From positions 186,001-250,000 of the forward strand of contig CAWUHX010000286.1 of the NCBI GenBank assembly GCA_963922205.1: a stretch of 64,000 bases of DNA, written 5' to 3'. Of this stretch, positions 3,001 through 57,779 are shown in pieces. Position 1 is the stretch's first letter, and each line of letters begins with the position of its first letter. The notes under the pieces are model-generated. The model ran no database searches. It was not told the DNA's origin and saw only the letters and a program-made list of their open reading frames with translations. The position numbers and the translations under genes were made by a program. This DNA comes from Romanomermis culicivorax. Lineage: Eukaryota; Nematoda; Enoplea; Mermithida; Mermithidae.

Positions 3001-3578
3001 ATCGAAAATCGCGAAGCCGAAAAAGAACACCCGGATATTATCAACATGATGATCGATTGGACGTGTCCTATTCCAGTCGGACGGCCTCACTGGATAGGCC
3101 TAGGGCCAACGAAGCGAGTCAACAGGGAGTATCAATGGCCGACCCCAATGCAATGATGATGGCGCAGCAGCAACAATTGCCGTATATGCCGCCGAATTAT
3201 CCGGGATTACCTATGGTAGGAGTTGACTGTATGACTCGCCCTCTCTTTTCAGGTCAACTATTGCCCAATACAATGATACCTCCGCCACAGCAATTTCAAG
3301 TTTCGCAATTTCCGGTTTTACAATTCCAGCTGGGCCAACAGCAATATTATCACCAGTTCTTGGTTCCGCCCGGAATACAAATGCCGCCGCCGTCAGTAAT
3401 TCCGCCGATACGCAACATGCAAGGCGAAGAAAGGATGGAAATCCCGGGTACGTCGACGGGAATGCAAGTGCCGCAAGGACCACCGCCGATAGGAAACCCC
3501 GAATATATATCGCCGCTGAAGAGAGATCAAGGTATCGGTCAGCCGGGGCGGGACCACAGCGGTCATCGACAGAAGTAA
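3..3578 (+). CDS. Large 3' ORF of LTR retrotransposon: exonuclease C-terminus plus novel domains (5' partial)
   Basis: The frame is open to the left window edge, so the first ATG (18) is probably not the true start; 1186 codons follow it without a stop. Numbering from that ATG, residues 1-75 match the end of a DEDDy 3'-5' exonuclease fold, with a Y54-x3-D58 box (YATLDA). Residues about 120-420 form an unassigned domain with WPHS at 279-282. Residues about 510-580 are acidic coiled coil. About 670-840 is a helical domain with LPEKLW near 741. About 890-1030 is Arg/Glu/Lys-rich with SR dipeptides, and 1030-1186 is Pro/Gln-rich. The same order of parts occurs in broken form at 42727-47880, downstream of an integrase, so I infer this is the last ORF of a related element. 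A function in nucleic-acid trimming or RNP binding is inference. A domesticated host gene is the alternative. Confidence 0.7.
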   Translation, partial: KAKTRMVGISPEALNLKAFMTELLFLWADAFKISWGQLSSLEFRQLMEADKLNIEVLRYATLDARGSLLCFLALLRYGFASDVQNCFRLYPHDTMEPELVSNLARRFRETFEDKYTDPQWKGAYGVEEMTGNINALYFMMREEAISTYKLSEDQTAGNFYCPPHFSNSEKDPQPVPRGWYPWIERRVKASRKRKDTEESVVTPTNDWDLEDIIAARQFGRPIEPREMEMKQGRWPNKVIHFTNKLQEQVSSLKDYYHKKINRSIVPVVKELYEKNINPIIYFLWPHSAQEWRSWVPGFTSGMWSTVWRNEQERIEFMKWMGQDLLNNKMTDQAEQMMERYPKVRTQKSVQNTFCILPIKWIPRSLKEPEEEIETDLRDNSIYFLNHNFYNVFHFLHIHAASKNLIYWNVSASIFEAKDLWVPSTSATFKSVTKWDDSDLFPQVEVVVPASQGPIEGTSKEQTENVPSKNDNLNVSGVEMDQEKPVEVIIADSPTANAPIDDNKNVGEEEKLMEIVEPEREIQPDVERLTEQIKEMREKIETLEKEKYGKAAIELAKQLETINAEEEETSEEPYVEVVSEIGSEDESPETNVLPAPRVYAKAGGQSVENITNPTKFARVMHNKRQEKENRISKEENKAELDQVKSGKFHQPPGNPNDRIKYRRGLGKRGQLLKKALKEGKYVVDFQYGRVSLSNPCVQKYLAHMDPALDEEVALMTTDLINRIYDEAGVEIETIRYYELQFHVLQANLPEKLWNIFERQLTEWATTRAPEKAYEAAVWACACLFMKLSRLGRIPQNFAGFHYQAHAYVAMKLRREFNAGQEGPASNFHTLYASCQSKASGLAYTIAKAVLQDKKDPEPNYTNIQVWKKEIDNTDPRIRFWEVIDRKKARDLLELEKKLKKKIGYRVKHPYSRPAAGKVSRHWTRKDDDKQKKEKLATPEKERKRRYESRHRDESRHEKSMSREKRRRENEEESWRKEIEEYEEKFERKEKERREMEERKENRKSRSRKRTPGYYQHDDRLDVSYSSRTASLDRPRANEASQQGVSMADPNAMMMAQQQQLPYMPPNYPGLPMVGVDCMTRPLFSGQLLPNTMIPPPQQFQVSQFPVLQFQLGQQQYYHQFLVPPGIQMPPPSVIPPIRNMQGEERMEIPGTSTGMQVPQGPPPIGNPEYISPLKRDQGIGQPGRDHSGHRQK

Positions 3579-4755: not shown

Positions 4756-4767
4756 GGGGGGGAGGGA
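4756..4767 (+). other. Polypurine tract
   Basis: GGGGGGGAGGGA immediately precedes TGTCAGAGGG. A purine run directly 5' of a TG is the usual plus-strand primer just upstream of a 3' LTR. Confidence 0.6.
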
Positions 4768-5555
4768 TGTCAGAGGGTCAATTCCTCTGACCTTTGGTCC
4801 TCTAACTACCTCACTTTTATTCTCTAAAGCTCCTTTGTTGTTAAAGTGGTTTCATTTATTCTTGGGCAAACAAACCAGTAAAACGATTTGTGTCATATAC
4901 ATTTTTGGGTCAAAAAATACATAAATGGTGACGTGAATGTTTTGCATGCATCTGCAAAGTCGATGTTAGACGCGTGGCGGTTTTGTTTCATTATTATTAT
5001 TAGTCGTCTTATTGTGAACCGGTCGCGTTTTCCTTGGCGTCTTCGAAGAAGACTCGTGGCGACTGTGGAAGGATAGCGGACGCCTTTTATTGTTCGTATT
5101 ATTGTGTATTTTCGACTTCGCGTCGCTGACTCGTTTGGAGAAACTCCCGCGACCTGAGAGGACTTCCGACGTTCAAACTTTGTTGAGGAGAAGAGTGAGT
5201 GCTAGTTCAAAAGGTAGACAGATCATTTTCTTAAGCTTTCAGCTTAGGTCGTGGATTAAGGTACCCGAAGGTCCCTGGGACTCTGTGTACAGGGACTTAA
5301 GAAGGGTAAGCGACTTAGGGAGGTGTTCAGTGTTCGTATTCACACTTTGGCATTTCGTATTTGTGTTCATCATTTGCTCACGGTTGTATTTGCACTTTTG
5401 TCAGTTCCCCAAAATAAATATCTTTGTTTCTTACGTCTCTGAGACCTGCAGTAGGACAGTACCTAACACCGGGTTAGCGTCAGGGGCCGTACTAGATTGG
5501 ATCTCCCGAGAACCGCAGCTAGGTAGCCGAGGGCATACGAGCACGTAATACGACA
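4768..5555 (+). repeat. Putative 3' LTR of the left-edge retrotransposon
   Basis: It begins TGTCAGAGGG right after the purine tract. The other element's LTR in its own sense begins TGTCGGGGAT, a similar start. An AATAAA lies at about 5413 and the proposed end is TACGACA at 5555. The 5' partner LTR is outside the window, so the right boundary is provisional. The internal ORF at 5090-5548 shows no domain. Confidence 0.5.
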
Positions 5556-8921: not shown

Positions 8922-37379
<28,458 letters not shown>

Positions 37380-37423
37380 GTCGTCTGATAATTTAAACCA
37401 ATTCCAGTCGGCAGAATGCGGAG

Positions 37424-37431
37424 ATTATATA
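37424..37431 (-). promoter_or_regulatory. Possible TATA element upstream of clathrin
   Basis: Minus-strand TATATAAT about 45 nt before the ATG. It would imply a very short leader, and chance occurrence in AT-rich DNA is likely. Confidence 0.2.
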
Positions 37432-41388: not shown

Positions 41389-41984
41389 TGTTGAGATGAG
41401 ACTTGGTGTTGGAATTGAGAAATATAAATAAATGAATTGGTATCAGAATAGACCTAATCAGTCACTCCCTAATTCACCTAATCAGGCCGAAACCATAGGT
41501 AGAATGAGTTTGCAACAGTTCGGTCAGTCTCAAAATCAACAAAGATCTCCTGCTTTTGTTCCAAAGAACTGCAGAAGATTAGATAACTCTCTGGGCTCAA
41601 GTAACCTCAAATCAGGGACAAACCCAGAAGTCAGGCCGAGAATTGAGTTGTAAATGTAGACTTGCACGCTGGGTGGCACTCCAGAAGTCTGGGGTCTAAC
41701 CTGCGTTCTCTCCGCTGCGAGTCGTCCAAATAATTGTCCAGGCGAGGGACGTTGTATTTTCGGGTAAATTCTCCACAAAAATATAATAAATTAATATTAT
41801 AATAAAATGGCCAATAGGCCGCCGATTCACTTTATTATAAAAAAACAATAATCAAAGAATGACCAAAAACATAGACGACCGGCACTTTTATGCGCAGTGT
41901 CTATGCTAATCGGCGTCGACGCAAATCGCGTCGACTTTGGCTATTTCTTCGCAACCTGGAGATAGACTATGTCCATCCCCGACA
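41389..41984 (-). repeat. 3' LTR of the Gypsy element
   Basis: 596 bp. In element sense it begins TGTCGGGGATGG and ends ATCTCAACA, with TG...CA borders. It is nearly identical to 55625-56179 plus 57760-57779. No strong purine tract precedes it. Confidence 0.9.
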
Positions 41985-42726
41985 TCCGTCGAGCCTCGAA
42001 ACTGACCAATGGGAGGTTAAAAAGATTCATAATACGCGGCAATGACAATTTTGGAATCTTTTCAGGCCCTAATACAGTTAAAGCAGTTTTCTGAACCTTT
42101 TTGGTCATTCATGCCCCCTTGCGGAAAGCTTTCCGAATGACCACCCTCTTACGTCAAGTCTTTTACCAGGCATACTGGAATTTCCACAGGGCCGTCCGGG
42201 TGCGCTACCTATTGGTCTGGAGGCCGACGGGTCGATGACTCCGCGTCGGCTTGACTTTGTTGGCCTACCGCCGAATCCAATTTGACCTGCACCAGGGCCG
42301 AGGGTCTTCGGTTGCCGACCATCCCCTGACCTTTCCTTTCGTGCCATACACTGGAGGCCAGCAGAACATTTTTCTGTCTATCTCTTTCGGGTTGCGTGTT
42401 TCGCCATGAAGTCTCGGCCCTTTTTCCAACATTGCCCTCGTCAAAAATTTTTCTATAATGTCTAAATAATCTACAAAATATGTACATTAGTAGGAGTATC
42501 ACAAAAAAAATCAAATCCCGGGCGTATCGATTGAGCAAAAAATAAAAAAAAAGAAAAAATAAGGCGAGATTTAAATGAGATTAAGTGAAAAAATAAATTT
42601 TTACATGCCCGTTTTTTGGCAATGGGAGGTACGAAAACGAATAAAAAATTTAAAGCACGCAACAATCAAGAAAAAATTTTTTTGGTATTTTGTATTTTGT
42701 ATTATTTTTTTTGTATTTTTGTTATT

Positions 42727-43998
42727 TTATATTTTTTTGTATTTTGTGTTTTTTATGAAAAATAAATGTGAAAACGATATTTTTAGGCCAAAAACCTTGC
42801 GGCTAAATTGCTGTTGCGGCCCGCCGCCTCCTTGCACCCCTCTGTGCGCTCCTCCACGACCTCCGTAAGGTCTCCATACCCATTGGCCCTGCTGGCCATC
42901 TCTACCTTGCACCTGAGGCGCAGCACCCCTGCCACGCACTGCTCCACGACCACCCCGGTTGGGATTGTGGAACTGAAATTGGCCTCGGCCGCGGTTACCA
43001 GTTTTTTGCACCTTTCCTTGCGTAATCGGGGCTAATTCCAGGCTTCCTTGGCCTTGACGTCCGGGAACCTTCAAAGTAGCACCGGTTTTTCCGTCTTGAA
43101 CTTTACTGAACTTAACACAGCTTTGCAAGTCTGAACTGGCACTCCTTTTGGCTCCCATCACTCCGACCTGGTGATTGCTACTGAGCATCATTGATCGAAA
43201 GGCCGTTTTGAATTCCAAGGGGGTATCCTGGCTATTATACACCCTCAACAGTCGGTTATTCGCCGCCACCATGGCCCTGGCATAAATGTTTCCAATATGC
43301 ATCGGGGATAGCGGGGCGCATTCCAACATGAGGAACAGCATCATAACCAGATACCTTACCAAGGAAAACACATCAGGTGCTCTCTCCGCCTTGAGCCACC
43401 TGGGGACAAAGTCATACATGACTCTTTCCCAGAGTTCTTCAGGTAAATTGGTCCGATCATAGAGAAAAGCTCCCTGGACTCTGAACTGTTGTTCATAATC
43501 CCGGTAGATTTCCCTAACGGCATCATTTACCATGAAGAAAACCCTTTCTGACTCGAATTGCTCGAAGGCAAAATACTTGGCCACTGCACTCGTAAAAAAT
43601 GATATGGGTCCAGATTCTCTGGCTTTTGGTTGATAGACATCCCAGAAGTCCAAGAGACTGTCCTTGAATTTTTCCGCAGTAACTTCCGGCGTTTCAGTTA
43701 CCTGAGCGGCCTGTGCCTGCTTAATTTTGCTAGGACCAGCCACTTGTACTTGACTAGCTGCCACTCCTGGTTTTTGGTCCTTGCTGGGTTTTGCCTGACC
43801 TTTCGGTGTCGGTTTCCCCATCGCAAGGCCTATTGCGCCTGAAGCTTGACTAGTTTTAGATGTACTATCTTGAGTTGCAGTTGCCACTGAAGATGTAGTC
43901 AATGACGGTGTTCCAGTTGAAGTGGAAGTAATTTGGGAAGTAGGGGTAGCAGTGGAGGTAATCGTAGAAGTTGAGGTCGATATGACGGGTGAAGTCAC
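42727..43998 (-). pseudogene. 3' part of exonuclease-type ORF: Ser/Thr-rich linker, LPE-LW domain, RGG tail
   Basis: 423 codons. The N-terminus is Ser/Thr-rich low complexity. Residues about 110-290 match the second unassigned domain of the left-edge ORF (LPEELW here, LPEKLW there, with similar hydrophobic spacing around both). The C-terminus is rich in RGG and RGR, as in RNA-binding tails. The frame differs from the preceding segment, which stops at 44003, so a frameshift lies near 44000. Confidence 0.7.
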
Positions 43999-44002
43999 TG
44001 TC

Positions 44003-45040
44003 TTACTGTCTTACTTTTGCTCCCTTGATACCCTTCCTCCTTTTTTCCTTCTCTTTCACTCTCATTTTCTTCTTTCTTTCAGCCATAAATAGTATTTTCT
44101 CGTCGTTCCAACCCTTTTCTCTCATACTCTGAACAACTTTGGCTGAGTACAAACCTGGAACACCCCCATCAGCAGAAAACGCTATTACCTCCTTGCCCTC
44201 TGTCATCTCTGATTCGGGCGTTTCCGCTATCATTTCGTCAATAATGAGCTTGTCGGAGGCTATATCGTCATCTATTTTCATCGGCGATGGTGGCTCTAAT
44301 ACGACTACTTTCGCTTCCATTTTGGGCGCTGCGGTATCGTCTTTCTGGAGTCCGAATTGAATTGCCATTTGACGAAGTTTTTTGTTATAAATTGCCCCAT
44401 TCTTCGCCAATTCTTCCTCCATTTGCTCGCGTTGGAGTCAAATCCTTTCCTTCGCCTCCTCTTCCATCTTTAAAATTACCTCTAATCGATGCTGGTTGTT
44501 GAGTTCCGACTGCGTCTGAGCAGTTTGAGCTTGCATCAGTTCCGTTGCCAGAACCGATTGCTCTTCCTGCTGCTCTTCTTCCGACAGTTCAGTGACGTCC
44601 TCATCCAGTCCTTGGTCTTGCGATTCACCTTCAGCCGGCAGTCCAACTGCATTGCTGAAGATTTCGCTTTCCGACGTTTGGACTTCCTGACCTGAAAGTA
44701 TCAGAAATTCAACTACACCTACTTCAGCTTGCTGTTTGTCCTCACCTTTCAGACTATCAGTCTTGGTGGGAGTAATCTTGCCAGCTAATTTGGTGACAAC
44801 ACCTTCACCCATTTTATAACTAAATGTGTGCTGAATTCCTGGTAAATCCGAGGCCAGAGGTCTAAGGTCAAAGATCTTTGTAGGGAAAGCTATACTATAC
44901 TCCCTACTTTCAGCCAATGACCCATAGACGTCTCCAACCTTGTCGATTTTGGTTTGCCAGGTTACCCCATATCTTAATGAAGGCGTCCTTTGTGCTAGCT
45001 TGATATGGTAGAACCAGGGCTGTGCGCAGGATTTTTTCAT
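44003..45040 (-). pseudogene. Middle part of exonuclease-type ORF: acidic coiled coil
   Basis: Two stretches (45040-44438 and 44422-44003) lie in one frame, separated by a single TGA. The sequence is acidic, Gln-rich and Lys/Glu-rich with coiled-coil character, corresponding to the acidic coiled region of the left-edge ORF. The first codons after 45014 belong to the inserted element E1. Confidence 0.65.
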
Positions 45041-45991
45041 GGGGGCAGATTAGATTTTTTCACTGAATAGCCCCAGGAAATGTTGATCTTACGCGGATAT
45101 ACTGTGTGCATCACCATTTTTTTCCTCGAAGATTTTTTCCAGATGAGAACCAGACCCAAAATTTTTTTACCTCATTTTCCAAAAAATTTTCCACATTTTA
45201 AAAACGCTTATAATGTGGCTACGGATGCTTTTTTATGCATTTTAGGAGCATACCCAAGCATTCTGTTGTATTTGTAGTCAGAAACCTGCAAAAATGAGGA
45301 AAAAAATTGAGAAACTTCTGATTATGTTAGTCAAAATGAGCTCATGAAGAATATATTGGTGTTCTATAGAATGGTCCGGTGCAGAGCACCGGAAAAATTT
45401 TCTGATTTTCACTTTCTAAAACCCTGGAAAATGAACCTTCATAACGTTGGGAAATGAATTAAAATCAGACTGATGAAGCCTAATTTGGGTCCCATTCCAG
45501 TGGGCAGCGCCGGAAAAATTTTCGGGTTTTTGTATTCTAAAATGCTGAAAAATCTCTCCAACAGATAATTCGTGAACAAATGTTTTGAAATCACGTTCTA
45601 GAGTAATGTCTTCAATTTCCACGTTCAATAAACCCAAAAGTTCAGATTGCAAACGTTTAAAAAATTCCAATCATCGAGAGAAAAAATTGAGAGACTTGAT
45701 GAAAAATCTCTATTTTTGGCGACATAATTGACTGTAAATGATTAGAAAATGAAACGACCTAACTTGATTGATAGAAACTGTTGAGCATTAATTAGTATGT
45801 CGAAGTAGATATGCTAACGGCCGCGCCTGATAGAATATAGTTATAATTACACCCATGACCGGTGCCAAGCGCCGGAAAATTTTGAGATTTTGACCTTTTA
45901 AAGTCCACCAAAACACATCTTTTCAGTTTAGAGTTACTGCCTCAATGGGGGGGGGGCGGCCGCCCCCCCGCCCCCCTTGCGCACAGCCATG
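45015..45991 (+). mobile_element. CAGGGCTGTGCGCA-family element, copy E1, inserted in the ORF
   Basis: 977 bp; ends CAGGGCTGTGCGCAGG and inverted CATGGCTGTGCGCAAGG; perfect 8-bp duplication GGTAGAAC. It splits the exonuclease-type ORF. It contains GC hairpins at 45376, 45497 and 45859, and homopolymer G/C around a GCGGCCGC at its right end. Confidence 0.85.
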
Positions 45992-47450
45992 GGTAGAACC
46001 TAACATAATAATACGGATTCGAGCTATAGCTCTTACTGTCCATAGTTATTGTGTCAGGGCTGCCAGGGATCGGCGCGCACACATCGGCATTCTTCCATAA
46101 CCTCAATTGAATCGGCATAAATCCGAATCGATTCATCCAAACATATATTCCAGCACCTTTTTGGGGTACCTCATACTCTATGTTTGGAAGAGTTTTAACC
46201 AACAAAAGATATTGGGATAACTTTTCCTCTGACTGCCAAGCCATTTCCTTTATTTTGCCCTGTAGCTCTGGGCTGAACGATGTAATGAACCTGTAACTAA
46301 ACATTTCGGCCATTACAAAGTCCAGTTCCTTTCTGCTATGGGGCCAGATCACGTGGAAGGCCAGCGGGACTAAAGCACAAGCGGCTTGCAGTTCTGAGAA
46401 CCGCTTTTCCTCAAATGCCTCAGCATACTCCACTAGCTGAGGCTTCCAGTGATCTTTGTCAAAATACCCCACTCCAGGATCAATGTCAATAGGCACATGA
46501 ACCAGATGGTTTTTTAGGGCATCCAGTAGTGCTTGCTTTTGATGATCCTGGGGTAATTTGACAACTTTTCTTGTCGTGTCTATGAACCAAACTAAGGACG
46601 CTGGCTGCGTGAGCTCCTGATACTGCTTTCCTTGCGCCATCTCCTCCACTAACTCCAAGCGCAACTTATCCTTGGCCGACAAGCGCTGTTCAGGTCTAAT
46701 CATTTTGTCGTCATCGGGATTGCTTGCTTCATCATAGGAATTGGGTTTTAATTTTTTACCCTGACGGTAAGCACCTGGATAGGTGCCCCGCCATGGCAAA
46801 TTTTCTTTCCCCTTCCTAGGATTGCAGATATCCCGATGGCAATGGAATTTAGGCCCTATTTCTTGCACTTGCATGGCCCACCTTGCATACATTTCTTGGC
46901 GCATCATGTGGTAGGTGGCCTCAGACTGCCTAGCCACAATATCAGGTGTACCCACAGCCACAATATCAGGTATACGTAGTTTATAATCCATAACTATATA
47001 TGAGTAAAACTGATAGAATTTATATGAGAGTATTTCAATCTAAGCTGGATCGACTATATGGTGAGGAAAGTTAGCAACTCCCCCACATAGCTCAATCACG
47101 TACCCATAGTGAAATGCCCCCATAAAAATTGCCAAAGATAAGTACGCATCCATGCCAGCGTACTGCAGTATCTCTTCAGGGACTCTTTCTTTGGCCACAT
47201 TTTGCCTATTACGTAAAAGACTAAAATCAGTCCGGTGAGGACCGATATCAGCCAGATACATTTTGGCAAAAAGGAATTTCAATTTCAATGTCTCAGGGCA
47301 GATTCCAGCTTCCCTGGATTTGGTAATCTTGCTTCCCATGATCTGCTTTGCCGTGACGCTTAGATCATAGTATCTTCCGAGATTTCCATCCTTGATACTA
47401 CATCTAATCGCGACCATCGGTGCTTTTTCCGCATCCACGGACATTGACAA
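45992..47450 (-). pseudogene. Exonuclease-type ORF: DEDDy motif III and WPHS domain
   Basis: One frame with a single stop at 47040. Residues of the first part include YAGMDA, the Y-x3-D motif III of RNase D/WRN exonucleases. The second part matches the left-edge ORF around MMRQEM (MMREEA there) and WPHS, so the WPHS domain is shared by both copies. It ends at the E1 insertion. Confidence 0.75.
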
Positions 47451-47878
47451 TTGAAACTATATCCTCCAAAATGGCGTAACCAACTAACAACGTCGCTGAG
47501 CATAAAAAGTGTAACAAAATGTTCCACCCTTGCTCTTGCAGCAACGTCAAGTCCATTACGAACGTTTTACCATTTAGGTGGGCAAACGAAACTAATCTGG
47601 CAAACTGGTTACCTTTTTCGTTTTCGACCCCCCAACTAAATAGTTTTCTAGCATCCTCACAGTTCACCTTCTCTACATCGAAGCCGACAATGTTCATGCC
47701 TCGGAAAGTGCTGATTTCGAGGTGTTTTACCACCCTTTCCACACTTCCCATGGGAACAATTATCGGCTCGATAGGGTTGGTCAGCCAGAACTCAAAAGTG
47801 GCAAAAAACCACCTTTCTAACTCCACTATCTGCATTGCCCGACGGATATTGTGGTCTGAAAATCTGGGAGAGATTTAA
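47404..47878 (-). pseudogene. Exonuclease-type ORF: DEDDy motifs I and II
   Basis: Contains NIVGFDVEKV, the D-x-E of exonuclease motif I, and LLVGYAILED, matching motif II with its Asp. VMDLTLLQEQGW lies between, as in RNase D-like folds. The frame shifts at about 47404-47450 before motif III. In frame upstream of the first ATG (47835) the sequence runs back through TTTTCAG-ACC at about 47860, a good 3' splice site, suggesting expression from a spliced RNA. Confidence 0.75.
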
Positions 47879-49008
47879 GTTTTTATTCAGATATACTCTA
47901 TTACTCTTTTATGTGCATTTACGTGACCCTTTTCTCAACTCTTTGGGTAATTTTACCCACTACTACTTTTTACCTTTGGGGAAACTCTAGCACCTTTGTG
48001 CAAAACACCGTTTAACTTTTGAACTTTTGAAATTTTGGAGCGGGAACTTGATATTTAGCCTTTCTGGCTGTTGGGTGTCCCTTTATAGAAACCAAAATTG
48101 ATAGGCAAAAATATGTGAAATTAGGTGTTTTTCACTCTAAGCCCAACACACTCTTGCTACTCGATCAGCGCTAATCGATCACAACTCTGATCTCCACGAC
48201 TAATTCCTGCTAATCCCCTTCTTCGCTGCTTTGCAGAAACCAGAGGGAGCAGGAATGACAAAAACCTCCCCTAATCGGATCACCTAATTCGACCGAAGTC
48301 TTTTTCGGATCACCTAGGTTCGGCCCTTGCCACCCCCTTCTACCTAATTTTTTGTGTTTAATTCTCAACTCCCAGTTGGTAGCTCGTCCGAGAAAGGGCA
48401 CAGAAATAGTCTTGCAAAACACCCCTGACGAGCGTAACCTTCGCTATTTACAAGGATAAAAAATGGTTGCTTACCGTCGACCAAAAAATATCAATTATTT
48501 TGCCGCGGGTGCGGCTCCCCAAACTGGACTTCATCGTCCGTGGCGTTGTACGTTCGAGTACACTCATTCGGCGTACCCATTCGAAATTTTTGGGCCTGTT
48601 TCTTTGCACTGAAATATTTTTTAAAATCTTTAAAACCGAATTTGCAGCTGTGAAAAGTAGACAGATGTATAAAACATTTACAGTCTATTCCCATGCAGCT
48701 GCAAATTACCTTACGGGAGGATTCTTCCGTACAAAATATTTTCGAAAAAGATTTGAAAAAATGAGAGCAGACGCCGGACACAACTTTTGAAAATTTTGAA
48801 TGATTTGGAGTAGTTAACCAAGAAGTTGTAAAATGGAAAATTTACGAAAACGGGTCTTTCACTTTAAAAGCTTTTCCCCCGCTTCGTTAAAACACAATCC
48901 TATACATCAAAAAATATTAAAACGGATTTTAACCGTTACAAAACACAATTAGAATAGATATTTATTAAATACAAAAAATAAATACACGCAAATCGGCAGA
49001 TTTTGCCG
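47879..49008. other. Non-coding gap between integrase and the exonuclease ORF
   Basis: About 1.1 kb inside the retrotransposon with no domain in any frame. It may hold a splice acceptor or subgenomic promoter for the downstream ORF. The ORFs at 48467-48790 are not supported. Confidence 0.4.
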
Positions 49009-50979
49009 CTACGAAACTACATCAGGGGTCGCTCTACTCTCTGCTGATTGCGAAGGTACAGTAAGACCATACGATCGATTTTTTACGTAGTTCTGCCATC
49101 GTGTAGTCTCGTAGCAAAAAATTTTCAGCCTACTTGCTGAAACCTTTTGCCGTAGCAAAAGATTATCATAACGTGCAATTGTTATGACATTATCTTCTAA
49201 CCTGGAAACATCATTTATAATGAAGGGTCCTTCCCAAGTTAAGCCTAGTTTCTTTTGCTTATCAACTTTAAGAAGTACCCAATCATTTTCTTTAAAAACC
49301 GAGGTTTTAATTTTCTTGTCGAAATATCTTTTGCTAGCTTCCACTGCTTTCTGGATATTTTCTGCAATAATACCATAAAGCCTGGTTAAGTGGTCTGTTA
49401 GGATGAATTTATATGCCTCATAATTCATGGGCATTACTATTTTAAGGGCTTTTGAGAAATTCATCCCAAACTTTGCCTCATGGCCCCATAACAACGCAAA
49501 TGGTGATGCTTTCGTCACTGCGTGTGGGGTTGCATTATAGGCAAAGACCACTGATTTGAGATATCTTGGCCAGCTATTGGGTTCACCGATAGCTACTTTT
49601 CTCAGTTGTTTTATTAGAGTTTGGTTGAACCTCTCTACCATACCATTACCCTGAGGGTGGTAAGCAGTAGTGAAGATCTTCTTACACTCTAATAAGTCAC
49701 AAACTGATTTCATTAAATCCGAAGTAAAACAAGATCCATTGTCACTTAGGAGTTTTGTTGGTGTTCCATGCCTAAATATTACAGCTTCTAAGAACACATT
49801 CACAACTGAGTTTGCTGATTGATTTGGGATCATTTCAGCTTCAACCCATTTTGTGAAATAGTCCTGAAAAATTATAACATAAGGCATTCTTTCTCCCAAA
49901 GGCAAAATTCCTACTATATCCATGGATACAATGTCGAATGGACCTTGTGGCACAATGGGTATCAACGGAGGAATGGATGGCTTTCCTGCAGTTGCCATTT
50001 GACAGACAACGCAGTATTTTATCCATTCCCTGACATCTTTTTCCATGCCAGGCCACCAATAATGCCTTTTCATGACACTCAGAGTTCTTTTGAAACCCTG
50101 GTGTGTCATTATTACAGCACCATGATGCTGATGCAGTACAGAGTCCCTGAGGTTTGGGGGTAAGACCAATTGGTCTTCGCTTTCTGCCTCAGTTTCCCTA
50201 TACAATACATCATTTTCTTCGTAGAACCCAGTGTGATACTTCATTATGCTACTTGCACCTAACCTGTCCCAGATTGGCTTTAAGCTTTCGTCTGCTTTTT
50301 GCAGTTTGCTCATCAAGTCATCTGGAACCAGGCCAATAGATATCTCTTTTTCTCCTGATGTTCCTGGTTTATCAAATTCCTCCTCCTTTCTAGGGTGTAA
50401 CCACTGCACATTGTCTTGTTTCTTAGGTGTCGCAGATTTATCAGTTTCCTGATTTTCTTTCTGCACCTTTTCTGAGACACGAGCTTCGCTTCGGGTTACT
50501 ACCGCTTCTACTCCTTTAGAATGCTCTCTTTCGTCCTTAGAACTATTTCGAGCACCCTCTCCTTCGTTTTTATCCTTGTGGGATTTATTCTCCTCAGAGA
50601 TGTTGTTCCTCTTGGCCACCAAGGAAATTTGTTGTTGTTCTTGTTGTTCTTTTATTATTCCTTTGACATCGGAGGAAACAACATCCAATTTGAACATGCT
50701 GTCCCACTTTGGTGGTGATTTCACCACATCCTCTGGCTCATCCTTTCTGGAGAGAAAGTCAGCCATAGCCTTTTGTCTACCGGGCACATATTCTAACTTG
50801 TGGTTGTATTGATTTATGATCGCATACCACCGTTTCAATTTGTCATTTGTTGTAGTATTGACTTTCATTGATAACAGTGGTCTGTGATCTGTCTTAATCA
50901 ATACTTTCTGCCCCAATAATGCCGATAGATTTTGAGGCCGTAGATAATTGTGAGGCACTCCCTCTCGGTTGTGAACCAC
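49009..50979 (-). CDS. pol: Gypsy pol: RNase H end and integrase (long intact segment)
   Basis: 656 codons open. Residues about 25-85 end an RNase H domain (KTDHRPLLS, YVPGRQKAMADFLSR). After a charged linker comes an HHCC zinc finger (Cys pair YCVVCQ). The integrase core has catalytic Asp near 352 (SMDIVG), Asp near 412 (SDNGSCF) and Glu near 447 (MVERFN). WEGPFIINDV is the GPF module of Gypsy-class integrases. The upstream frame is broken at about 50900-50979, so the piece is not translated as part of a full polyprotein. Confidence 0.85.
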   Translation of the reverse strand: MVHNREGVPHNYLRPQNLSALLGQKVLIKTDHRPLLSMKVNTTTNDKLKRWYAIINQYNHKLEYVPGRQKAMADFLSRKDEPEDVVKSPPKWDSMFKLDVVSSDVKGIIKEQQEQQQISLVAKRNNISEENKSHKDKNEGEGARNSSKDEREHSKGVEAVVTRSEARVSEKVQKENQETDKSATPKKQDNVQWLHPRKEEEFDKPGTSGEKEISIGLVPDDLMSKLQKADESLKPIWDRLGASSIMKYHTGFYEENDVLYRETEAESEDQLVLPPNLRDSVLHQHHGAVIMTHQGFKRTLSVMKRHYWWPGMEKDVREWIKYCVVCQMATAGKPSIPPLIPIVPQGPFDIVSMDIVGILPLGERMPYVIIFQDYFTKWVEAEMIPNQSANSVVNVFLEAVIFRHGTPTKLLSDNGSCFTSDLMKSVCDLLECKKIFTTAYHPQGNGMVERFNQTLIKQLRKVAIGEPNSWPRYLKSVVFAYNATPHAVTKASPFALLWGHEAKFGMNFSKALKIVMPMNYEAYKFILTDHLTRLYGIIAENIQKAVEASKRYFDKKIKTSVFKENDWVLLKVDKQKKLGLTWEGPFIINDVSRLEDNVITIARYDNLLLRQKVSASRLKIFCYETTRWQNYVKNRSYGLTVPSQSAESRATPDVVS

Positions 50980-51116
50980 TTTTTCTCATCCTCTTTTAGC
51001 ACACGACTATTATATGCTATGACCCACTTGTCATCTCCAGACTCTTGATACAGAACAGCCCCTAGTGCTGTTCCACTGGCATCGGTTTGCAGAATGAACT
51101 GGGCTGAGCCATCCAT
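50898..51116 (-). pseudogene. pol: Gypsy pol: RNase H start
   Basis: Contains LQTDASGTALGAVLYQ and FTTERECLTIIYGLK, the first catalytic Asp and Glu regions of Gypsy RNase H. It shifts frame relative to the following segment. Confidence 0.8.
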
Positions 51117-51219
51117 TACTGAGTACCTAAGAAATGGAACCGATACCGTGCTTCTTTCAAAGCATTAAATGCTTTGTAATGATCCTCTGTGACGAGCCAT
51201 TTATTCCTTTTCTTGGCTG

Positions 51220-51519
51220 TCAGCTTATACAAGGTTCTGCGTGCTTTGCCAGATGTGGTATAAATTTTTTACACCACTGGAGCATTCGGAGAAACCTTTG
51301 CATATGCTTGACCGAGTCCCGGAATTCAAACTCCTTTATAGCTTGCACTTTTTTCGGATCAGGCGAAATTCCATTAGAATCCAAAATGTGACCAAGAAAA
51401 TGTACCTTCTTTGGTAGGAATTCGCATCTTTCCGGTCTAAGTGTAAGCTGGGCTCCTCTCAGAGCATCCAGGACCAATTTCAATTTTTCTATGTGTTCCT
51501 CAAACGTATTCGAGAACAC
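51220..51519 (-). pseudogene. pol: Gypsy pol: RT thumb/connection
   Basis: Contains EHIEKLKLVLDALRGAQLTL, CEFLPKKVHFLGHIL and FLRMLQWCKKFI, typical of RT downstream of the active site. Upstream in frame the tyrosine of the YxDD box is replaced by a stop codon at 51535-51537. Confidence 0.8.
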
Positions 51520-51534
51520 TATGATATCGTCTAT

Positions 51535-51925
51535 CTAAACTAGACATATCTTCCAAACATGAGGATGAAGGATTCTTTCCATCATCCTCTGGAACTCTGC
51601 TGGTGCATTTTTCAGTCCAAAGGGCATTACTTTGAACTGAAACAACCCTTCCTGACACAGGAAAGCAGTCTTTTCTTTACTGCCTTCTTCCATTGGCACT
51701 TGCCAGTAACCAGACTTAAGGTCAAGAGTCGTATAAAATTTTGCTCTCCAGATAATCATCCATTCTTGGTATTGGATATCGATCATCCTTCATAACCTCG
51801 TTTAAGCCTCTAAAATCAACAACCAGCCTGAGCGACCCATCTTTCTTCCCTACTAGGAATAATGGCGTCGCCCAGGGCGATCTTGATGGCTCTATGACTT
51901 ATTTGTCCAGCATTTCTTGCACATG
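51535..51925 (-). pseudogene. pol: Gypsy pol: RT fingers and palm
   Basis: 51786-51535 contains [16 protein letters not shown] and [17 protein letters not shown], classic RT palm blocks. 51925-51787 encodes WATPLFLVGKKDGSLRLVVD in another frame and carries two stops. Together they show a heavily mutated RT. Confidence 0.8.
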
Positions 51926-53611
51926 TTATCTGATATATGGTCGCCATTCAATGGCAGCTCTGTAGTAATGTTTCGCCACAGGGCTAGCATCACCTGTATC
52001 AATTTTACAAGTAAGATGGGGAGTAGTCAGAGGATCATGAGGTAGGCTAAATACATCCCGATATTTCACGAGTTGCTGTATCGCCATCTCTTTCTGTTCC
52101 TCTGACACTGTAGCTTTAGAGGTCATTTTGTAAAATGCTTCCAGAAACATAACTCCATCGAATTTTGATTCTTTGGCATCGAAAATGCCCTCTAGGCTAT
52201 TTTCTCCACTATTTCTTACCTGTAAAACTGATACACTTGATTTTCCCCAAAATACGGAGTTACAGTAGCCAAGAACTTGATTAGGTTCTATCAGGCAACC
52301 AGAACCCGTATTATTGGAGATCATCAATACAAAGTCCTTCTTTGAACCGTCAACTATAGTATCATCTATTCTGAATCTTGTTTCTGAATCATCTCCTTCT
52401 ATGATGATTCCATTTATTCTATTTGCCGAAGATTTATTCCACAATTTGGCTTTCACTAGCTGATTTGTTCCGTGTGGAATGTAAATTCTATTACAAGCCA
52501 CTACTGGAACTAGATTTTCTAGCTGCTGGATTGTCGAACAATGATCTTCTTCAATAGAATTTTCTTGTATTGATTCTGCTATCATCGGATTATGCATCCC
52601 AACTATTGGAATTGCTTTCTTATCAGATGTTAACAAATCAATACTTTTCTTTACACTCATCATAGTCATTGAACCTTTTCCAAAGTTTATTACCGTATTG
52701 ACTTCCGGATGCGCTAGGAAGTCTGTTCCCAATATTAAATCCTCTGCGGACCCTGGTATTATGATAGCTTTGACTGGAATACGGCCATAATCACATTCCA
52801 TTTGAAACTGAATGTAACCATGTGCACTAACTACTTTACCATTGGCGACAGTGACTTTTAGGATCTTAGGGTACGCTGTATACTCCAGTCCAAGTGATTT
52901 TTTCAAGAAATCACTGGACATCACCGAACACTGAGCTCCTGTGTCAATCAGTGCCTTTGCAGTAGTAGAACACACAGTTACTCTGATGTGAAATGGCTGT
53001 GTTCTAGGGTATCTTGCTAACATATCCAGTTCTTCTGCAGTTGCCTTCCTACCATACTCGGCACTGCATTCCATTTCCGGCACATTCTCCTCTTTCTCCA
53101 TGGCACAGTTATGTAGGCCACACAACTTCATCTCCATCATTGGTTCTTGCTGTACACTATTGATACCACTACTTGGCGGTTGGTCTGTCTGCCCGGAGGC
53201 TTGCGATGGACTAACTACCTTTTGCGGAACCAACAAGGTATTTGAACTCTGATTTGCGATTACTGGTTGTTGGTCCATTAGATTTGGTCCTGGTAACATC
53301 AGTTGGGTGGTAGCCTGTAACAATCTCATCTGCTCCCTGAGCTTCTTCAACTTTACGTATTCCTGGAACTCGGCATATTCTTGCAAATTTTCCGCCTCGT
53401 CGTCAGGAAACGAAACTTGATAAGCTCCCCTTTCACTTTTGTTACCAAAACCTCCTCTATTTCCTCGGTAATTTCCTCTGAAATTTCCTCTACCTCGGAA
53501 ATTTCCAAAACTTGCTCTAGGATTTCCTCTTCCAAAGCCTCTTCCACTATTTCCACCCCTTCCACGATTTTGTAGACCTTTATAAAAATTCAAGGTTCTA
53601 CAATCAACCAT
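51926..53611 (-). CDS. pol: Gypsy pol: Gly/Arg-rich linker, aspartic protease, RT start
   Basis: 561 codons open. The N-terminus is Gly/Arg-rich. At about 220-330 is a retropepsin-like protease with the DTGAQ active site and ILGTDFL flap partner. The C-terminus enters RT (HLTCKIDTGDASPVAKHYYR). Just upstream, at 53605-53650, a nucleic-acid-binding knuckle reads C-x2-H-x4-H-x4-C, that is, with His where the second Cys of a CCHC knuckle is expected. Two in-frame stops precede it. Confidence 0.8.
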   Translation of the reverse strand: MVDCRTLNFYKGLQNRGRGGNSGRGFGRGNPRASFGNFRGRGNFRGNYRGNRGGFGNKSERGAYQVSFPDDEAENLQEYAEFQEYVKLKKLREQMRLLQATTQLMLPGPNLMDQQPVIANQSSNTLLVPQKVVSPSQASGQTDQPPSSGINSVQQEPMMEMKLCGLHNCAMEKEENVPEMECSAEYGRKATAEELDMLARYPRTQPFHIRVTVCSTTAKALIDTGAQCSVMSSDFLKKSLGLEYTAYPKILKVTVANGKVVSAHGYIQFQMECDYGRIPVKAIIIPGSAEDLILGTDFLAHPEVNTVINFGKGSMTMMSVKKSIDLLTSDKKAIPIVGMHNPMIAESIQENSIEEDHCSTIQQLENLVPVVACNRIYIPHGTNQLVKAKLWNKSSANRINGIIIEGDDSETRFRIDDTIVDGSKKDFVLMISNNTGSGCLIEPNQVLGYCNSVFWGKSSVSVLQVRNSGENSLEGIFDAKESKFDGVMFLEAFYKMTSKATVSEEQKEMAIQQLVKYRDVFSLPHDPLTTPHLTCKIDTGDASPVAKHYYRAAIEWRPYIR

Positions 53612-53716
53612 GTTGTGGGTGTTGTTTTCGTGGTAAGTACACCATTTTCACTGCTGAACCTCTTGTTGACTTTTCACTTTCGCTCTATCAACTTTCTGAG
53701 TTAAAGCAGTTATGGC

Positions 53717-54128
53717 TTACTCTTGAGCTTTGGTCGAGTTCCTAATCTCTTCATAACATTGTGCCATTTTGATAAATTCTTTAGATAAAGCCACCATGAG
53801 GGAGTCCTTTTTTGGCTCCTCAACAGGCTGTTGCCGAGGCATTATGGCCTGTTGCGGAGGTACTTCAAGTACTTCATCATCTGCTATATCTATCAATTGA
53901 TTTTGCGAAGATTGCATTGGAGTTTGCCTTTCTGTGTTTGGTCTTCTAATGTCCTTATTGCGCTTTTGGGCACTTTCATAAGGCCTTTGGATTACATTCA
54001 CATCGGCTTGCTGCTCCTCAGCAATTTCCGTCTGTGCCGTATTTATCATCATGGGCTGCTCTCTTGGCCCAAATGTTCTAATAGCATTCCTGTACTTTAA
54101 CTCTATCTCATAGACTGCCTGCCAAAGA
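53717..54128 (-). pseudogene. gag: Gag C-terminal segment
   Basis: 54052-53717 is in the pol frame, not the main gag frame, and ends at a stop. The sequence between 54128 and 54052 continues gag in this frame, so a frameshift lies at about 54130-54145. Gln/Glu-rich, no distinct domain. Confidence 0.6.
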
Positions 54129-55526
54129 TCATACCAATTTTTGAATTTTGCTGTCTTTCTGCAGTTCTAATTGATAAGTTAAAGAACTTCTATAGAAAAA
54201 GGTTTCAATGATCACTTTGTTTTTAAACTCTTTAGTTTCACTCTGGTAAACGAGATTCACATGCGCTCTAACCCTTTTCAAAAATTTGGTTGCTGCTTCA
54301 TCAGGTTCCTGTTTGATATCCAATAAATCTTGTTTGAGCATGTCCAGGTTACAGTCTGGAGCACAATAGTTCAAAATCTTGTCTCGGGCTTCCCTATATG
54401 TTGTTGACTCTTCGGCCAATTCTTTCCGCAAATCACTTGACAAACGGGTTAATGCTTCTAGCTTCACTTCATCGGGAGTATTCTTTCGAAACTCACCTTC
54501 TAGCTCCACTAGAAAAGCAAGAACCTGTCTACTAGGCATATCAGATTGCAGTAATTTCGGTTTGATTGCCCTTTCAATGTCATAGACAGTTGGGCCTACT
54601 TGAGCCGGATTGACCCATAAAGCCGGATCAATCGGAATCATTGTAGGCATAACCTGCTGCCTGACACTTGCGGTCTCTCCCCTAATACAACTGCTCTGTT
54701 GTGATACAGTTGGATTTATTGGACTTGGGTTTTTTACGCCTTCATCAAAACCACAACTGCTCACTCTCTGCTCCACTTTTGAGGTAGTGGGCAAATGAGG
54801 CATATACTGCTCTTTAGGACCCAGACTTGACTTTTGGTCTTTCCGTCTACAGTCTTGCTGAAGAGTGATGCCATCATTTTGCCACGCTAACTCTTCCTGG
54901 GCCTGCTCAAACTTCAATGCACCGCCTTGTTCCAAACAACCAGCATTGCTTTGCCTCGGTTCATTTGCCTTACTGGCTTTCTGTGAACCTGTATTAGCAA
55001 TGTTGGCGAATATGCTATCATAAACATCTAACCTGTTTATGATTTGGTCCAGCTTATCCTCTAACGAGCTCTTTCGAGGATTTTCGCTGTGTTCTTCCCG
55101 CTCATTGTCCCAATATAATCGATGGTAAGTATTGAATAATTGGGCAGGTTTATTTGTCGGCCGGCGCTGCTGTTGATCCAAAACCAGAATGTTCATCTTT
55201 GGTAATGGACGCGCCGGTCCCATAATAGGTGGTTGTAAATATTCGCCTCTCTTTGGGAGGTTCATCCACGACGGAATTTTAAATATTTGATCTTTGTTCC
55301 CCGATAATATCGCGTTGTCACCCTCCCTTTCGACAGCTGCCGAGGTCATAGGTTGGTTGCCTTCATTTTCCACCGATAAAGGCCTATGATCTGAGCAATT
55401 GTCCTCTTCAGCTAAAGTTTCAGCTGAAGTTAGGACAATTAGCTTTTCTGCATCACGGGCCTTTTTTCCCGACGATGTTCTGGGCAAACCCGAACTCTTG
55501 AGGCCACCTAGGTTGTCTTTACTCAT
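54129..55526 (-). pseudogene. gag: Gag, N-terminal and capsid-like part
   Basis: The likely start is the ATG at 55526, about 98 nt inside the 5' LTR border. The open frame upstream of it crosses the primer-binding region and LTR. The C-terminal third (LTRLSSDLRKELAEESTTYR, FLKRVRAHVNLVYQSETKEF) has the helical pattern of a Gypsy capsid region. It is ended early by a frameshift. Confidence 0.7.
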
Positions 55527-55624
55527 TTTGTAACCTCCCAATTCTCTATAAAAACCAATAGGTTTTTTGACTCCTCGAGTTTGCCTCTGATTTTCCGTTA
55601 CTTTGAGTGTCAGAAGCCACCACT
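55527..55624 (-). other. Leader with primer-binding site candidate
   Basis: Two nt after the LTR, in element sense, lies TGGTGGCTTCTGAC, which would pair with a tRNA 3' end in ...CCA. The tRNA was not identified. Confidence 0.4.
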
Positions 55625-57779
55625 TGTTGAGATGAGACTTGATGTTGGAATTGAGAAATATAAATAAATGAATTGGTATCAAAATAGACCTAATCAGTCA
55701 CTCACTAATTCACCTAATCAGGCCGAAACCTTAGGTAGAATAAGTTTGCAACAGTTGTCTCAAAATCAACAAAGATCTCCTGCTTTCGTTCCAAAGAACT
55801 GCAGAAGATTAGATAACTCTCTGGGCTCAAGTAACTTCAAATCAGGGACAAACCCAGAAGTCAGGCCGAGAATTGAGTTGTAAATGTAGACTTGCACGCT
55901 GGGTGACACTCCAGAAATCTGGGGTCTAACCTGCGTTCCCTCTACTGCGAGTCGTCCAAATAATTGTCCAGGCGAGGGAGGTTGTATTTTCGGGGAAATT
56001 CTCCACAAAAATATGATAAATTAATATTATAATAAAATGGCCAATAGGCCGCCAATTCACTTTACTATAAAAAAACAATAATCAAAGAATGACCAAAAAC
56101 ATAGATGACCGGCACTTTTATGCGCGGTGTCTATGCAAATCGGCGTCGACTTTAGCTATTTCTTTGCAACCTGGAGATACAGTACGGGACAAATTTGTTG
56201 CAGCACCAGTAATCTTTTGGTGAATGTCTTGGCGATATACTGGGTCTTTACTGGTAGAAATTTCGAGATGAAATAGTGGATCACTGGTGCTTTACTAGTT
56301 GATAAGTTTGGCGGCCATGACACATTACTGGTGGCTTACTGGTAACATACTTCAATAAAATACATGCATACTATTTATATGAAAGTAATCAATACAATGT
56401 CCGTAGTTCTGGCTTTCAATCTGCTTTGTGTTTTTATCCTTCACAAAAATACAGGCATCCGTCATCCTCATGAATATATATGAAGCAAAAAGGAGAAATG
56501 GCGTTTTATTGTGGGCGTTCTGCCACTTAGCATTTCAGCTACTGTACAATTTTAGTGAAATTAAACTGACACCGCATGCATCAATGTGTAGTGTTTTCAT
56601 CTATGTCTTGATTTATCCACCACTCATTTGTTTGTATTTATCTGTTTTTATTTTGAAATGATAACTTCTCTAAAAGCAATCAAAATGTACATTTTTCAAA
56701 TTCTGCTATTACCGTATTACTCGAACTGACTTGTTTACACTTTACATAAAAAATGATAACTAAAACAGTATTGGTGCCTGAAGTTACAGAAAACTTTCAT
56801 AAACTAAGACTGTATCAGTCTCAGTTGCTGAAATGTGCTTGTGGCCAAATCGAGACACACATCAGAAATTAAATACATGCTATTGTTTATACACATGAAC
56901 ATGATAGAACATCAACCTTTAAGTATATTTATTCAGAAAATTCGGGTTGAAAACTAGAAAGTATTATGATTTTTCTACATTTAAAAATAGATCACATCTC
57001 AGTATGCTTCAAACTTTAATGCACACCTATAATCGTCTTTTTGATAAAAGCTAAAAATAACTTTCGCTATGGTTCTCAGAGGGAACCATAAGCATAACGA
57101 ACTATAAGATATTTTGTTAAAAAACTCTTCACTTGGACTATCATTTGCCTGATCACAGCCTGCTCAATGTTCACCTTTCCCAAGTAGGAAACCAAAAAGA
57201 ATTTAAAAAGAAAACAAAAGTCATATAAAAACTGCACAAGTTCCTTCTATCTGAAAATTGACAGTCATAATCTTTCCGATTTGATGGCATTATAGTACGC
57301 ATCTTGAAACGTGTCTGAACTAAAACCTACAAAGCAAGTATCAGTTCATATTTAACTAGAAGTATTCAGTGGCTGAAACCGTCACAATAAAAACCCATTT
57401 CTCCTTTCTGGTCTTTTTTTCGTTACACAACTTTTAGGCGAGAAAACAACTAAATGCTTTTCGGTTCATTAATATTCATGAGGATGGCGGACACCGGTAT
57501 TTTTGTTAAGGAGAAAAATGCAAGGCAGACTGAAGGACAAAACTACGGACATTGTATTGATTACTTGCATATAAATTGTATGCGTGTATTTTATTCAAGT
57601 ATATTACCAGTAATGCATCATGGCCGCCAAACTTATCAACTAGTAAAGCACCAGTAATCCACTATTTCATCTCGAAATTTCTGCCAGTAAAGACCCAGTA
57701 ATCGCCAAGACATTCACCAAAAGATTACTGGTGCTGCAATGAATTTGTCCCGTACTGTAGACTATGTCCATCCCCGACA
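55625..57779 (-). repeat. 5' LTR of the Gypsy element, split by a DNA transposon
   Basis: 55625-56179 and 57760-57779 together match the 596-bp LTR at 41389-41984. The intervening 1578 bp is the element at 56180-57757. Confidence 0.88.
56180..57757. mobile_element. Tc1/mariner-type non-autonomous element with very long inverted repeats
   Basis: Ends CAGTACGGGACAAATT at both sides, flanked by a TA duplication. The other LTR has a single TA at the site. The inverted repeats extend at least 320 bp with small gaps. The first 190 bp contain many ACTGGT/ACCAGT words, likely transposase-binding subterminal repeats. No transposase ORF. Confidence 0.8.

What the first reader, a model, noticed from the sequence alone, without database searches (positions are those of the whole stretch)
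41985..49008. Gypsy retrotransposon carrying a large 3'-5' exonuclease protein after integrase
Seen: between integrase and the 3' LTR lies about 5 kb of decayed coding sequence on the element's strand. It has the motifs FDVE, LLVGYAILED and YAGMDA in order and spacing expected for a DEDDy (RNase D/WRN/EXD-type) exonuclease, followed by two unassigned domains, a coiled coil and an RGG tail. Known: this position usually holds env or nothing in Ty3/Gypsy elements; extra domains reported to me are chromodomains, dUTPase or additional RNase H. Inference: an element lineage recruited a host-type exonuclease, perhaps to process RNA, trim cDNA ends or counter small-RNA silencing.
Basis: partly seen in the sequence, partly recalled or inferred. 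Interest (0 to 1): 0.92.

Follow-up and report, generated by a model that had tools for sequence, protein, structure and literature searches.

The report
Jumping genes carrying an exonuclease
A family of large retrotransposons in a mosquito-parasitic roundworm carries, after its integrase, a big extra protein that begins with a likely 3'-5' exonuclease; the copy in this stretch is broken, but unbroken and apparently selected copies exist elsewhere in the genome, so it looks like a working part of the element, of a kind previously reported from rotifers.

Summary
Window 41389-56181 (- strand) is a decayed Ty3/Gypsy element, family A, of the nematode Romanomermis culicivorax. Between integrase and 3' LTR lie remains of an ORF3 with DEDDy-exonuclease motifs. 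The host genome gave 112 scored matches to its dom2 part, many in an open frame of 1398 codons; 54 of 67 scored integrase copies have it about 2 kb downstream. A divergent family (B) at the left window edge is intact: LTRs differ at 1 of 791 aligned positions, ORF3 is open for 1361 codons. The A and B exonuclease regions are 24% identical, yet keep all five catalytic residues; a small upstream coding exon with same-phase splice signals is also shared. dN/dS is about 0.08-0.10 for ORF3 B and 0.06 for its integrase: purifying selection. A third LTR family (C) carries a clear PF01612 exonuclease ORF3. DEDDy ORF3s were reported from rotifer LTR elements in 2017, so the kind is known. Not found in my paper searches: a nematode case, this ORF3's size and domains, the mini-exon, selection on a DEDDy ORF3. 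Profile support for the exonuclease is weak in A and absent in B; fold, RNA evidence and substrate are missing.

The parts
55625..56181 (-). 5' LTR of the family A element
   Evidence: 533 of 576 aligned columns identical to the 3' LTR, 21 of them gaps; ends read
55605..55622 (-). primer-binding-like site TGGTGGCTTCTGACACTC, 2 nt inside the 5' LTR
   Evidence: sequence; single match of its last 17 bases in window. The tRNA was not identified
54129..55697 (-). gag-position open frame, no Pfam match
51926..53647 (-). protease-containing frame
   Evidence: Pfam gag-asp_proteas 4.9e-11
51220..51789 (-). reverse transcriptase, two broken pieces
   Evidence: Pfam RVT_1 1.2e-15 and 2.2e-08
50898..51164 (-). 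RNase H, first part
   Evidence: Pfam RT_RNaseH_2 2e-19
49009..50985 (-). end of RNase H and integrase
   Evidence: Pfam Integrase_H2C2 1.2e-19, rve 5.5e-13
48475..48580 (-). putative ORF3 exon 1 (106 nt, own ATG; broken in this copy), followed by donor GTAAGC
   Evidence: aligned with four other copies; same exon in gene model P0003, which joins it to dom2, not to the exonuclease
47856..48474 (-). putative ORF3 intron
   Evidence: donor GGTAAGC and acceptor TTTTCAG in this copy, TTTTTAG in the four others; no RNA evidence
47404..47855 (-). exonuclease N-half, motifs FDVE and ILED
47040..47456 (-). exonuclease C-half, motif YAGMDA
   Evidence: weak PF01612 match, E 0.066; the profile A4, which includes it, has EXD2 as its only PDB match, E 0.1
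45942..47039 (-). dom2, unassigned domain
   Evidence: 112 scored genome matches; family B relative z 6.9
45015..45992 (-). insertion of about 1 kb inside ORF3 of this copy, repeat-like
   Evidence: absent from L003; the two flanking matches overlap by 9 bases; similar repeat at window 6971-7139
44003..45049 (-). charged, coiled-coil-like region in two pieces
   Evidence: coiled coil judged by eye; no similarity to B shown
42727..44010 (-). C-terminal domain and RGG-rich tail
   Evidence: family B relative z 9.2 for the domain; tail read
41967..41983 (-). purine-rich tract before the 3' LTR (imperfect)
41389..41966 (-). 3' LTR of the family A element
3..3575 (+). family B ORF3, unbroken (1191 of 1361 open codons lie in the window), motif YATLDA
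4756..4767 (+). polypurine tract of the family B element
4768..5555 (+). 3' LTR of the family B element; 5' LTR is at L032:1947-2734
   Evidence: 791 aligned bases, 1 mismatch; TGT...ACA ends and 4-bp repeat TTCA outside both

Best explanation
This is the relic of one member of an abundant lineage of Ty3/Gypsy LTR retrotransposons of the mermithid nematode R. culicivorax whose third gene encodes a large, probably nucleic-acid-handling protein: DEDDy 3'-5' exonuclease, an unassigned domain, a charged coil, a C-terminal domain and an RGG-rich (A) or RS- and proline-rich (B) tail. Shown: the gene lies downstream of integrase at a fixed distance in most scored copies, its catalytic residues persist across two very divergent families, and its codons evolve under purifying selection close to that of integrase. 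Inferred: exonuclease activity; expression from a spliced mRNA with a small first coding exon. Inferred and least certain (about 0.4): the protein rides in the element's RNA-protein particle by way of its tail and trims 3' ends of element RNA or cDNA, making cDNA ends fit for integration.
For: Co-location: A 54 of 67; B 37 of 39, integrase match ending 1198-1219 nt before the ORF3 match. LTR-bounded young copies: C22 copy 601 of 601 LTR bases identical, B element 1 mismatch in 791. Catalytic residues: A FDVE/LEDI/YAGMD, B LDTE/REDI/YATLD; 28 of 30 family A loci keep all three A motifs in one frame, the exceptions being the window copy and L025. Exonuclease identity: a PF01612 search of the whole genome lists at least four family A copies among 103 matches, one of them over the curated cut-off; the A/B profile's only PDB match at E <= 10 is EXD2 (E 0.9). 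Selection: dN/dS 0.079, 0.088 and 0.095 for ORF3 B in three pairs, 0.038 in its 97-codon exonuclease part; integrase B 0.056. Splicing: exon 1 peptides of A and B align (2 of 5000 shuffles reach the score) and both end in phase 1 at GTAAG.
Against: Pfam support for A is weak (E 0.037-0.066 on single proteins) and absent for B. Profile comparison of A/B found nothing in E. coli RNase D (E 0.18) and only E 0.006 in family C, while an unrelated control (YeaX) reached E 0.025. B and C exonucleases show no pairwise similarity above shuffles (z 0.0). The N-half profile's PDB matches are unrelated. In A the exonuclease N-half of the window copy against L003 has the highest dN/dS of the six pieces (0.29), though this includes decay of the window copy. 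The one fold obtained, of half a domain, is unusable (pLDDT 45.6); no fold of the whole domain could be run. No RNA evidence for the splice and no substrate evidence. 13 of 67 integrase copies had no ORF3 in the truncated list; whether they lack it was not checked.
Confidence: 0.78

Rival explanations
1. Counter-silencing: the exonuclease degrades or trims small RNAs or their precursors, protecting the element from Dicer-made siRNAs.
For: A DEDD-class exonuclease acts in silencing (C. elegans mut-7, as cited in PMC5408684). R. culicivorax is reported to lack PRG-1/Piwi and 5'-triphosphate small RNAs, and clade I to keep an RRF-3-type RdRP (PMC4323106, passages read).
Against: No test here. A mut-7-like activity promotes silencing rather than blocking it.
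Confidence: 0.25
2. Structural or env-like role: the exonuclease fold is used as a binding platform and catalysis is dispensable.
For: ORF3 sits in the env position and is very large, with a coil-like region and RGG or RS tail. Catalytically inactive DEDD derivatives that keep RNA binding (Maelstrom, EXD1) exist, as PMC5408684 notes.
Against: The catalytic residues are kept between A and B at 24-26% identity; in B, dN/dS is lowest in the exonuclease part tested.
Confidence: 0.12
3. Captured host gene fragment in a single element, or a separate gene next to it.
For: Suggested by the decayed state of the window copy alone.
Against: Fixed spacing to integrase in 54 of 67 (A) and 37 of 39 (B) copies; LTRs flank it in the three further copies examined (B, C22, C4).
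Confidence: 0.01
4. Proofreading or error repair of cDNA during the element's own reverse transcription.
For: 3'-5' exonucleases proofread polymerases elsewhere (general knowledge); the elements are long, 13.6-13.9 kb (coordinates).
Against: Untested; ORF3 is a separate frame from pol. The family C copy examined has no RT motif yet keeps an exonuclease ORF3, though it could act in trans.
Confidence: 0.08

Closest known systems
DEDDy ORF3s of bdelloid rotifer LTR retrotransposons Juno and Vesta (Rodriguez, Kenefick, Arkhipova 2017, PMC5408684; outline, passages and two sections read)
   Same: RNase D-like DEDDy exonuclease as ORF3 after pol in LTR retrotransposons; more than one lineage in one genome.
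   Different: Nematode host. [quoted passage not shown] The paper reports DEDD changed to DEED, while D is kept here in motif III. Juno and Vesta carry a dUTPase; the family B gag-pol has no dUTPase match. The paper's variation test, on env- and GDSL-like ORFs only, found mostly neutral variation; here dN/dS of ORF3 is about 0.08-0.10 in B and 0.11-0.12 in the six most diverged pairs of A copies fetched. Common descent with the rotifer ORFs was not tested.
Terminons/Athena Penelope-like elements with DEDDy ORFs (PMC6431247, passages read)
   Same: Retroelement with accessory DEDDy exonuclease.
   Different: Different retroelement class; absence of LTRs and integrase there is recalled.
PF01612 cellular exonucleases (EXD2 and RNase D compared here; WRN recalled)
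   Same: Motifs DxE, D, YxxxD in order; EXD2 aligned at motif III.
   Different: Sequence similarity is near the limit of detection, RNase D not found by profile; unknown domains follow.
Family C LTR elements of the same genome
   Same: LTRs, integrase, then an exonuclease ORF3 (608 aa in L045, PF01612 1.4e-10).
   Different: The copy examined has no YxDD reverse-transcriptase motif in the 5.9 kb upstream (L046); its exonuclease is only weakly similar to A (blastp E 0.003) and not detectably to B.

Membership tests
Ty3/Gypsy LTR retrotransposon | LTR pair with PBS and polypurine tract | tested here: met
   A (imperfect purine tract), LTR pairs also; B
Ty3/Gypsy LTR retrotransposon | pol order protease-RT-RNase H-integrase | tested here: met
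   B in one 2010-aa frame; A in pieces
Ty3/Gypsy LTR retrotransposon | short target-site duplication | tested here: inconclusive
   TTCA for B, ATTA for the C4 copy of A; none seen for the window A copy or C22
Ty3/Gypsy LTR retrotransposon | RT phylogenetic placement | not tested
   No RT tree was built; RT pieces of A are 78% and 51% identical to B
DEDDy 3'-5' exonuclease (PF01612) | five catalytic residues DxE / D / YxxxD in order | tested here: met
   A, B and C
DEDDy 3'-5' exonuclease (PF01612) | score over Pfam's curated cut-off | tested here: inconclusive
   A: 1 of the 4 family A copies that I recognised is over the cut-off with its neighbours; L003 is below; B no match; C met
DEDDy 3'-5' exonuclease (PF01612) | RNase H-like fold | tested here: inconclusive
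   Half-domain model pLDDT 45.6; whole-domain fold not run
DEDDy 3'-5' exonuclease (PF01612) | metal-dependent 3'-5' exonuclease activity | not testable with these tools
   needs bench assay
Rotifer Juno/Vesta DEDDy ORF3 | exonuclease ORF3 downstream of pol within LTRs | tested here: met
Rotifer Juno/Vesta DEDDy ORF3 | common descent of ORF3 | not tested
   no rotifer ORF3 sequence was retrieved

The most novel reading that the evidence does not exclude
Independent retrotransposon lineages in nematodes and rotifers have converged on, or share, an ORF3 exonuclease as a standard, selected third gene. In this nematode it has become a 1.4-thousand-codon RNA-protein factor with its own spliced mini-exon, and an exonuclease ORF3 is retained even in an apparently RT-less, very recently inserted element of another family. 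That would point to a required 3'-end processing or anti-silencing step in the LTR-element life cycle that textbooks lack.
Probability: 0.35. Interest if true: 0.8.

Novelty: new variant of a known kind. Interest (0 to 1): 0.62.

Why it matters
It carries the exonuclease-ORF3 theme from rotifers to nematodes and adds clear purifying selection on such an ORF3 and several unbroken young copies. That makes the question of what a 3'-5' exonuclease does for an LTR retrotransposon directly testable, in an animal reported to lack Piwi (PMC4323106) and with 289 of 359 Mb called transposable elements (PMC10879605).

Tried and rejected
Single host-gene capture or a neighbouring gene: rejected by fixed spacing to integrase. 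C-terminal domain as a second capsid: the A/B C-terminal alignment does not match the elements' gag (E 0.89); that alignment was poor because L003 is cut inside this domain, so the test is weak. Rfam (gathering scores) and tRNA scans of the window: nothing. IMG/VR scan with dom2: nothing. Protein search with the 1191-aa ORF3 B: none at E <= 1 among 3293 candidates; with dom2 3 proteins and with exoN 2, four of the five named R. culicivorax and P0001 unnamed from ENA. PDB phmmer with single proteins: no exonuclease. NCBIfam with the six ORF3 pieces: nothing meaningful. Half-domain fold: unusable. Profile match of A/B to E. coli RNase D: none. Similarity of the C-terminal parts of family C with A or B: none. 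A first alignment of ORF3 B with the pieces of A was misaligned and not used.
Full report
WHERE. The window lies in an assembly of 359,112,060 bases in 595 contigs (C286:186001-250000). Size and contig number equal those of the Romanomermis culicivorax v2 assembly given in PMC10879605 (359.1 Mb, 595 scaffolds; passages read), and four of five protein matches are named R. culicivorax. The word gypsy does not occur in that paper's main text.

THE WINDOW COPY (family A). LTRs at 41389-41966 and 55625-56181 are 93% identical over 576 aligned columns, 21 of them gaps. A primer-binding-like site lies 2 nt inside the 5' LTR and a purine-rich tract before the 3' LTR; no clear target-site duplication was seen. 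Protease, RT, RNase H and integrase are present in several separate frames.

OTHER COPIES. A search of the host genome with dom2 scored 112 matches out of 2021 first-look candidates: the window itself and 111 others at 89-92% identity, many in an open frame of 1398 codons. Of 67 scored integrase matches (9695 candidates), 54 have a listed dom2 match 1973-2015 nt downstream on the same strand; none has one upstream or on the other strand within 8 kb; 13 have none listed, but both lists are truncated. In the C22 copy the LTRs are identical over 601 bases; in the C4 copy they are 97.5% identical, with ATTA on both sides, while C22 shows no such repeat. Their LTRs are only 83-88% identical to the window's, so the window copy seems to belong to another subfamily. 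gag-pol is a single open frame of 2237-2240 codons in many of the 67.

FAMILY B. The left edge of the window holds a second ORF3, open for 1191 codons in the window and 1361 in all. Upstream (L032) are a 2010-codon gag-pol frame with protease, RT, RNase H and integrase and a 5' LTR matching window 4767-5557 with 1 mismatch in 791; TTCA flanks both ends and a polypurine tract precedes the 3' LTR. 39 ORF3 B matches were scored of 6816 candidates; 37 of the 39 have an integrase match 1198-1219 nt upstream on the same strand (57 of 97 integrase rows were entered). RT pieces of A are 78% and 51% identical to B and RNase H-integrase 39%, whereas the exonuclease regions are 24% identical.

IS IT AN EXONUCLEASE? 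For: the residues of DEDDy enzymes are kept in order in A (FDVE, LED, YAGMD) and B (LDTE, RED, YATLD) at 24-26% overall identity. 28 of 30 family A loci keep the three A motifs in one frame. The genome-wide PF01612 search lists 103 matches at E <= 0.1, all but 8 over the cut-off; four of the 103 are family A ORF3s by position (E 0.04-0.08), one of them over the cut-off with its neighbours. The A/B C-half profile and the A/B profile each have one PDB match at E <= 10, both EXD2 (E 0.1 and 0.9), the latter aligned at YAxxDA. A against family C scores z 6.3, blastp E 0.003. Against: no single Pfam match of A passes its cut-off on its own, B has none, the N-half profile's PDB matches are unrelated photosystem proteins at E >= 1.1, B against C is at shuffle level, A/B against RNase D finds nothing, and A/B against C (E 0.006) is only modestly better than the best unrelated control (E 0.025). 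There is no usable fold. I hold the assignment at about 0.9 on the catalytic pattern under selection and the agreement of several weak signals.

SELECTION. dN/dS (Nei-Gojobori) for ORF3 B: 0.079 (window against L047, dS 0.51), 0.088 and 0.095 in two further pairs; by region 0.038 for the 97 exonuclease codons in the window, 0.052 C-terminal domain, 0.070 dom2, 0.099 tail, 0.12 coil. Integrase B, same pair of elements: 0.056. For A, the six window pieces against L003 give 0.10-0.29, highest in the exonuclease N-half; this includes decay of the window copy. Among 29 fetched A copies the six most diverged pairs give 0.11-0.12. The rotifer paper's variation test covered env- and GDSL-like ORFs only and found mostly neutral variation.

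EXPRESSION. Between pol and ORF3, family A copies share a 106-nt stretch starting with ATG and ending at GGTAAGC, and an acceptor TTTTTAG (TTTTCAG in the window) directly before the conserved ORF3 start. Three of the four other copies fetched keep it open at the same length, L035 has a 1-nt shift, and the window copy has a stop. Family B has an 85-nt counterpart with GTAAGT and TTTTAAG. Both leave phase 1, and the peptides share FGEP..RQ.N..F; 2 of 5000 shuffles reach their score, and of the three frames of the B intergenic region only this one scores high (44 against 17 and 19). Gene model P0003 uses the same exon and donor but joins it to dom2. This predicts a spliced ORF3 mRNA; no RNA was examined. 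Acceptor-like stretches before the ATG (read by eye) could receive a leader by cis- or trans-splicing.

FAMILY C. The eight best PF01612 loci were fetched; with the integrase of L039 as query, seven of eight (L039 included) show it upstream (L041 only a fragment at the locus edge, L040 not). In the C69 copy LTRs of 620 bases differ at one position and enclose a frame with zinc knuckle, RNase H and H2C2 domain (the last just under its cut-off), an integrase core 30% identical to A's (E 2e-16; no Pfam integrase match) and a 608-aa exonuclease ORF3 (PF01612 1.4e-10). No YxDD motif was found in any frame of L046, so this copy seems to lack reverse transcriptase. How many of the 103 matches are family C, and how many are host genes, was not counted.

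KNOWN OR NEW. Exonuclease ORF3s in LTR elements are known from bdelloid rotifers (PMC5408684). My paper searches (listings, with passages of the papers named) showed no report of one in a nematode; one search listed 15 of 46 papers, and the library holds open-licence PMC papers only. Hence: a new variant of a known kind.

MECHANISM. Shown: position, conservation, selection. Inferred: exonuclease activity, spliced expression, RNA binding by the RGG or RS tails. Chosen as likeliest, at about 0.4: 3'-end processing of element RNA or cDNA in the particle; counter-silencing second at about 0.25.

Noticed in passing
L045, L046, L054 (G000:C69:273025-280551): Third LTR family (C) with a 608-aa PF01612 exonuclease ORF3 and near-identical LTRs (1 difference in 620) but no visible reverse transcriptase: perhaps a recently mobile non-autonomous element.
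   Followed up: partly
window 24087-37424, - strand: Exons of a clathrin heavy chain-like gene (Pfam Clathrin 1.7e-31 and 3.1e-19, Clathrin_propel 7.1e-12 in three of four frames scanned); the family A element lies upstream of it.
   Followed up: partly
window 41536-41790 and 55766-56020, - strand: Both family A LTRs contain an 84-codon open frame.
   Followed up: no
G000:C473:6370-17116, C224:241783-251722, C74:533167-543304: LTR matches of family A type spaced only about 9-10 kb apart, possibly elements without ORF3: natural comparators.
   Followed up: no
window 6971-7139, 17318-18183, 45122-45878 and 58356-59467: Dispersed non-coding repeat with a GGCGC/GCGCC palindromic core; one copy interrupts ORF3 (the link between the copy in ORF3 and those at 17 and 58 kb is by eye).
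   Followed up: no
L034-L037; L032:9100-9195: Acceptor-like stretches (TCTACTTTTCACAG in A, CTACTTTTTAG in B) shortly before the ORF3 exon 1 ATG, possible sites for a spliced leader (by eye).
   Followed up: no
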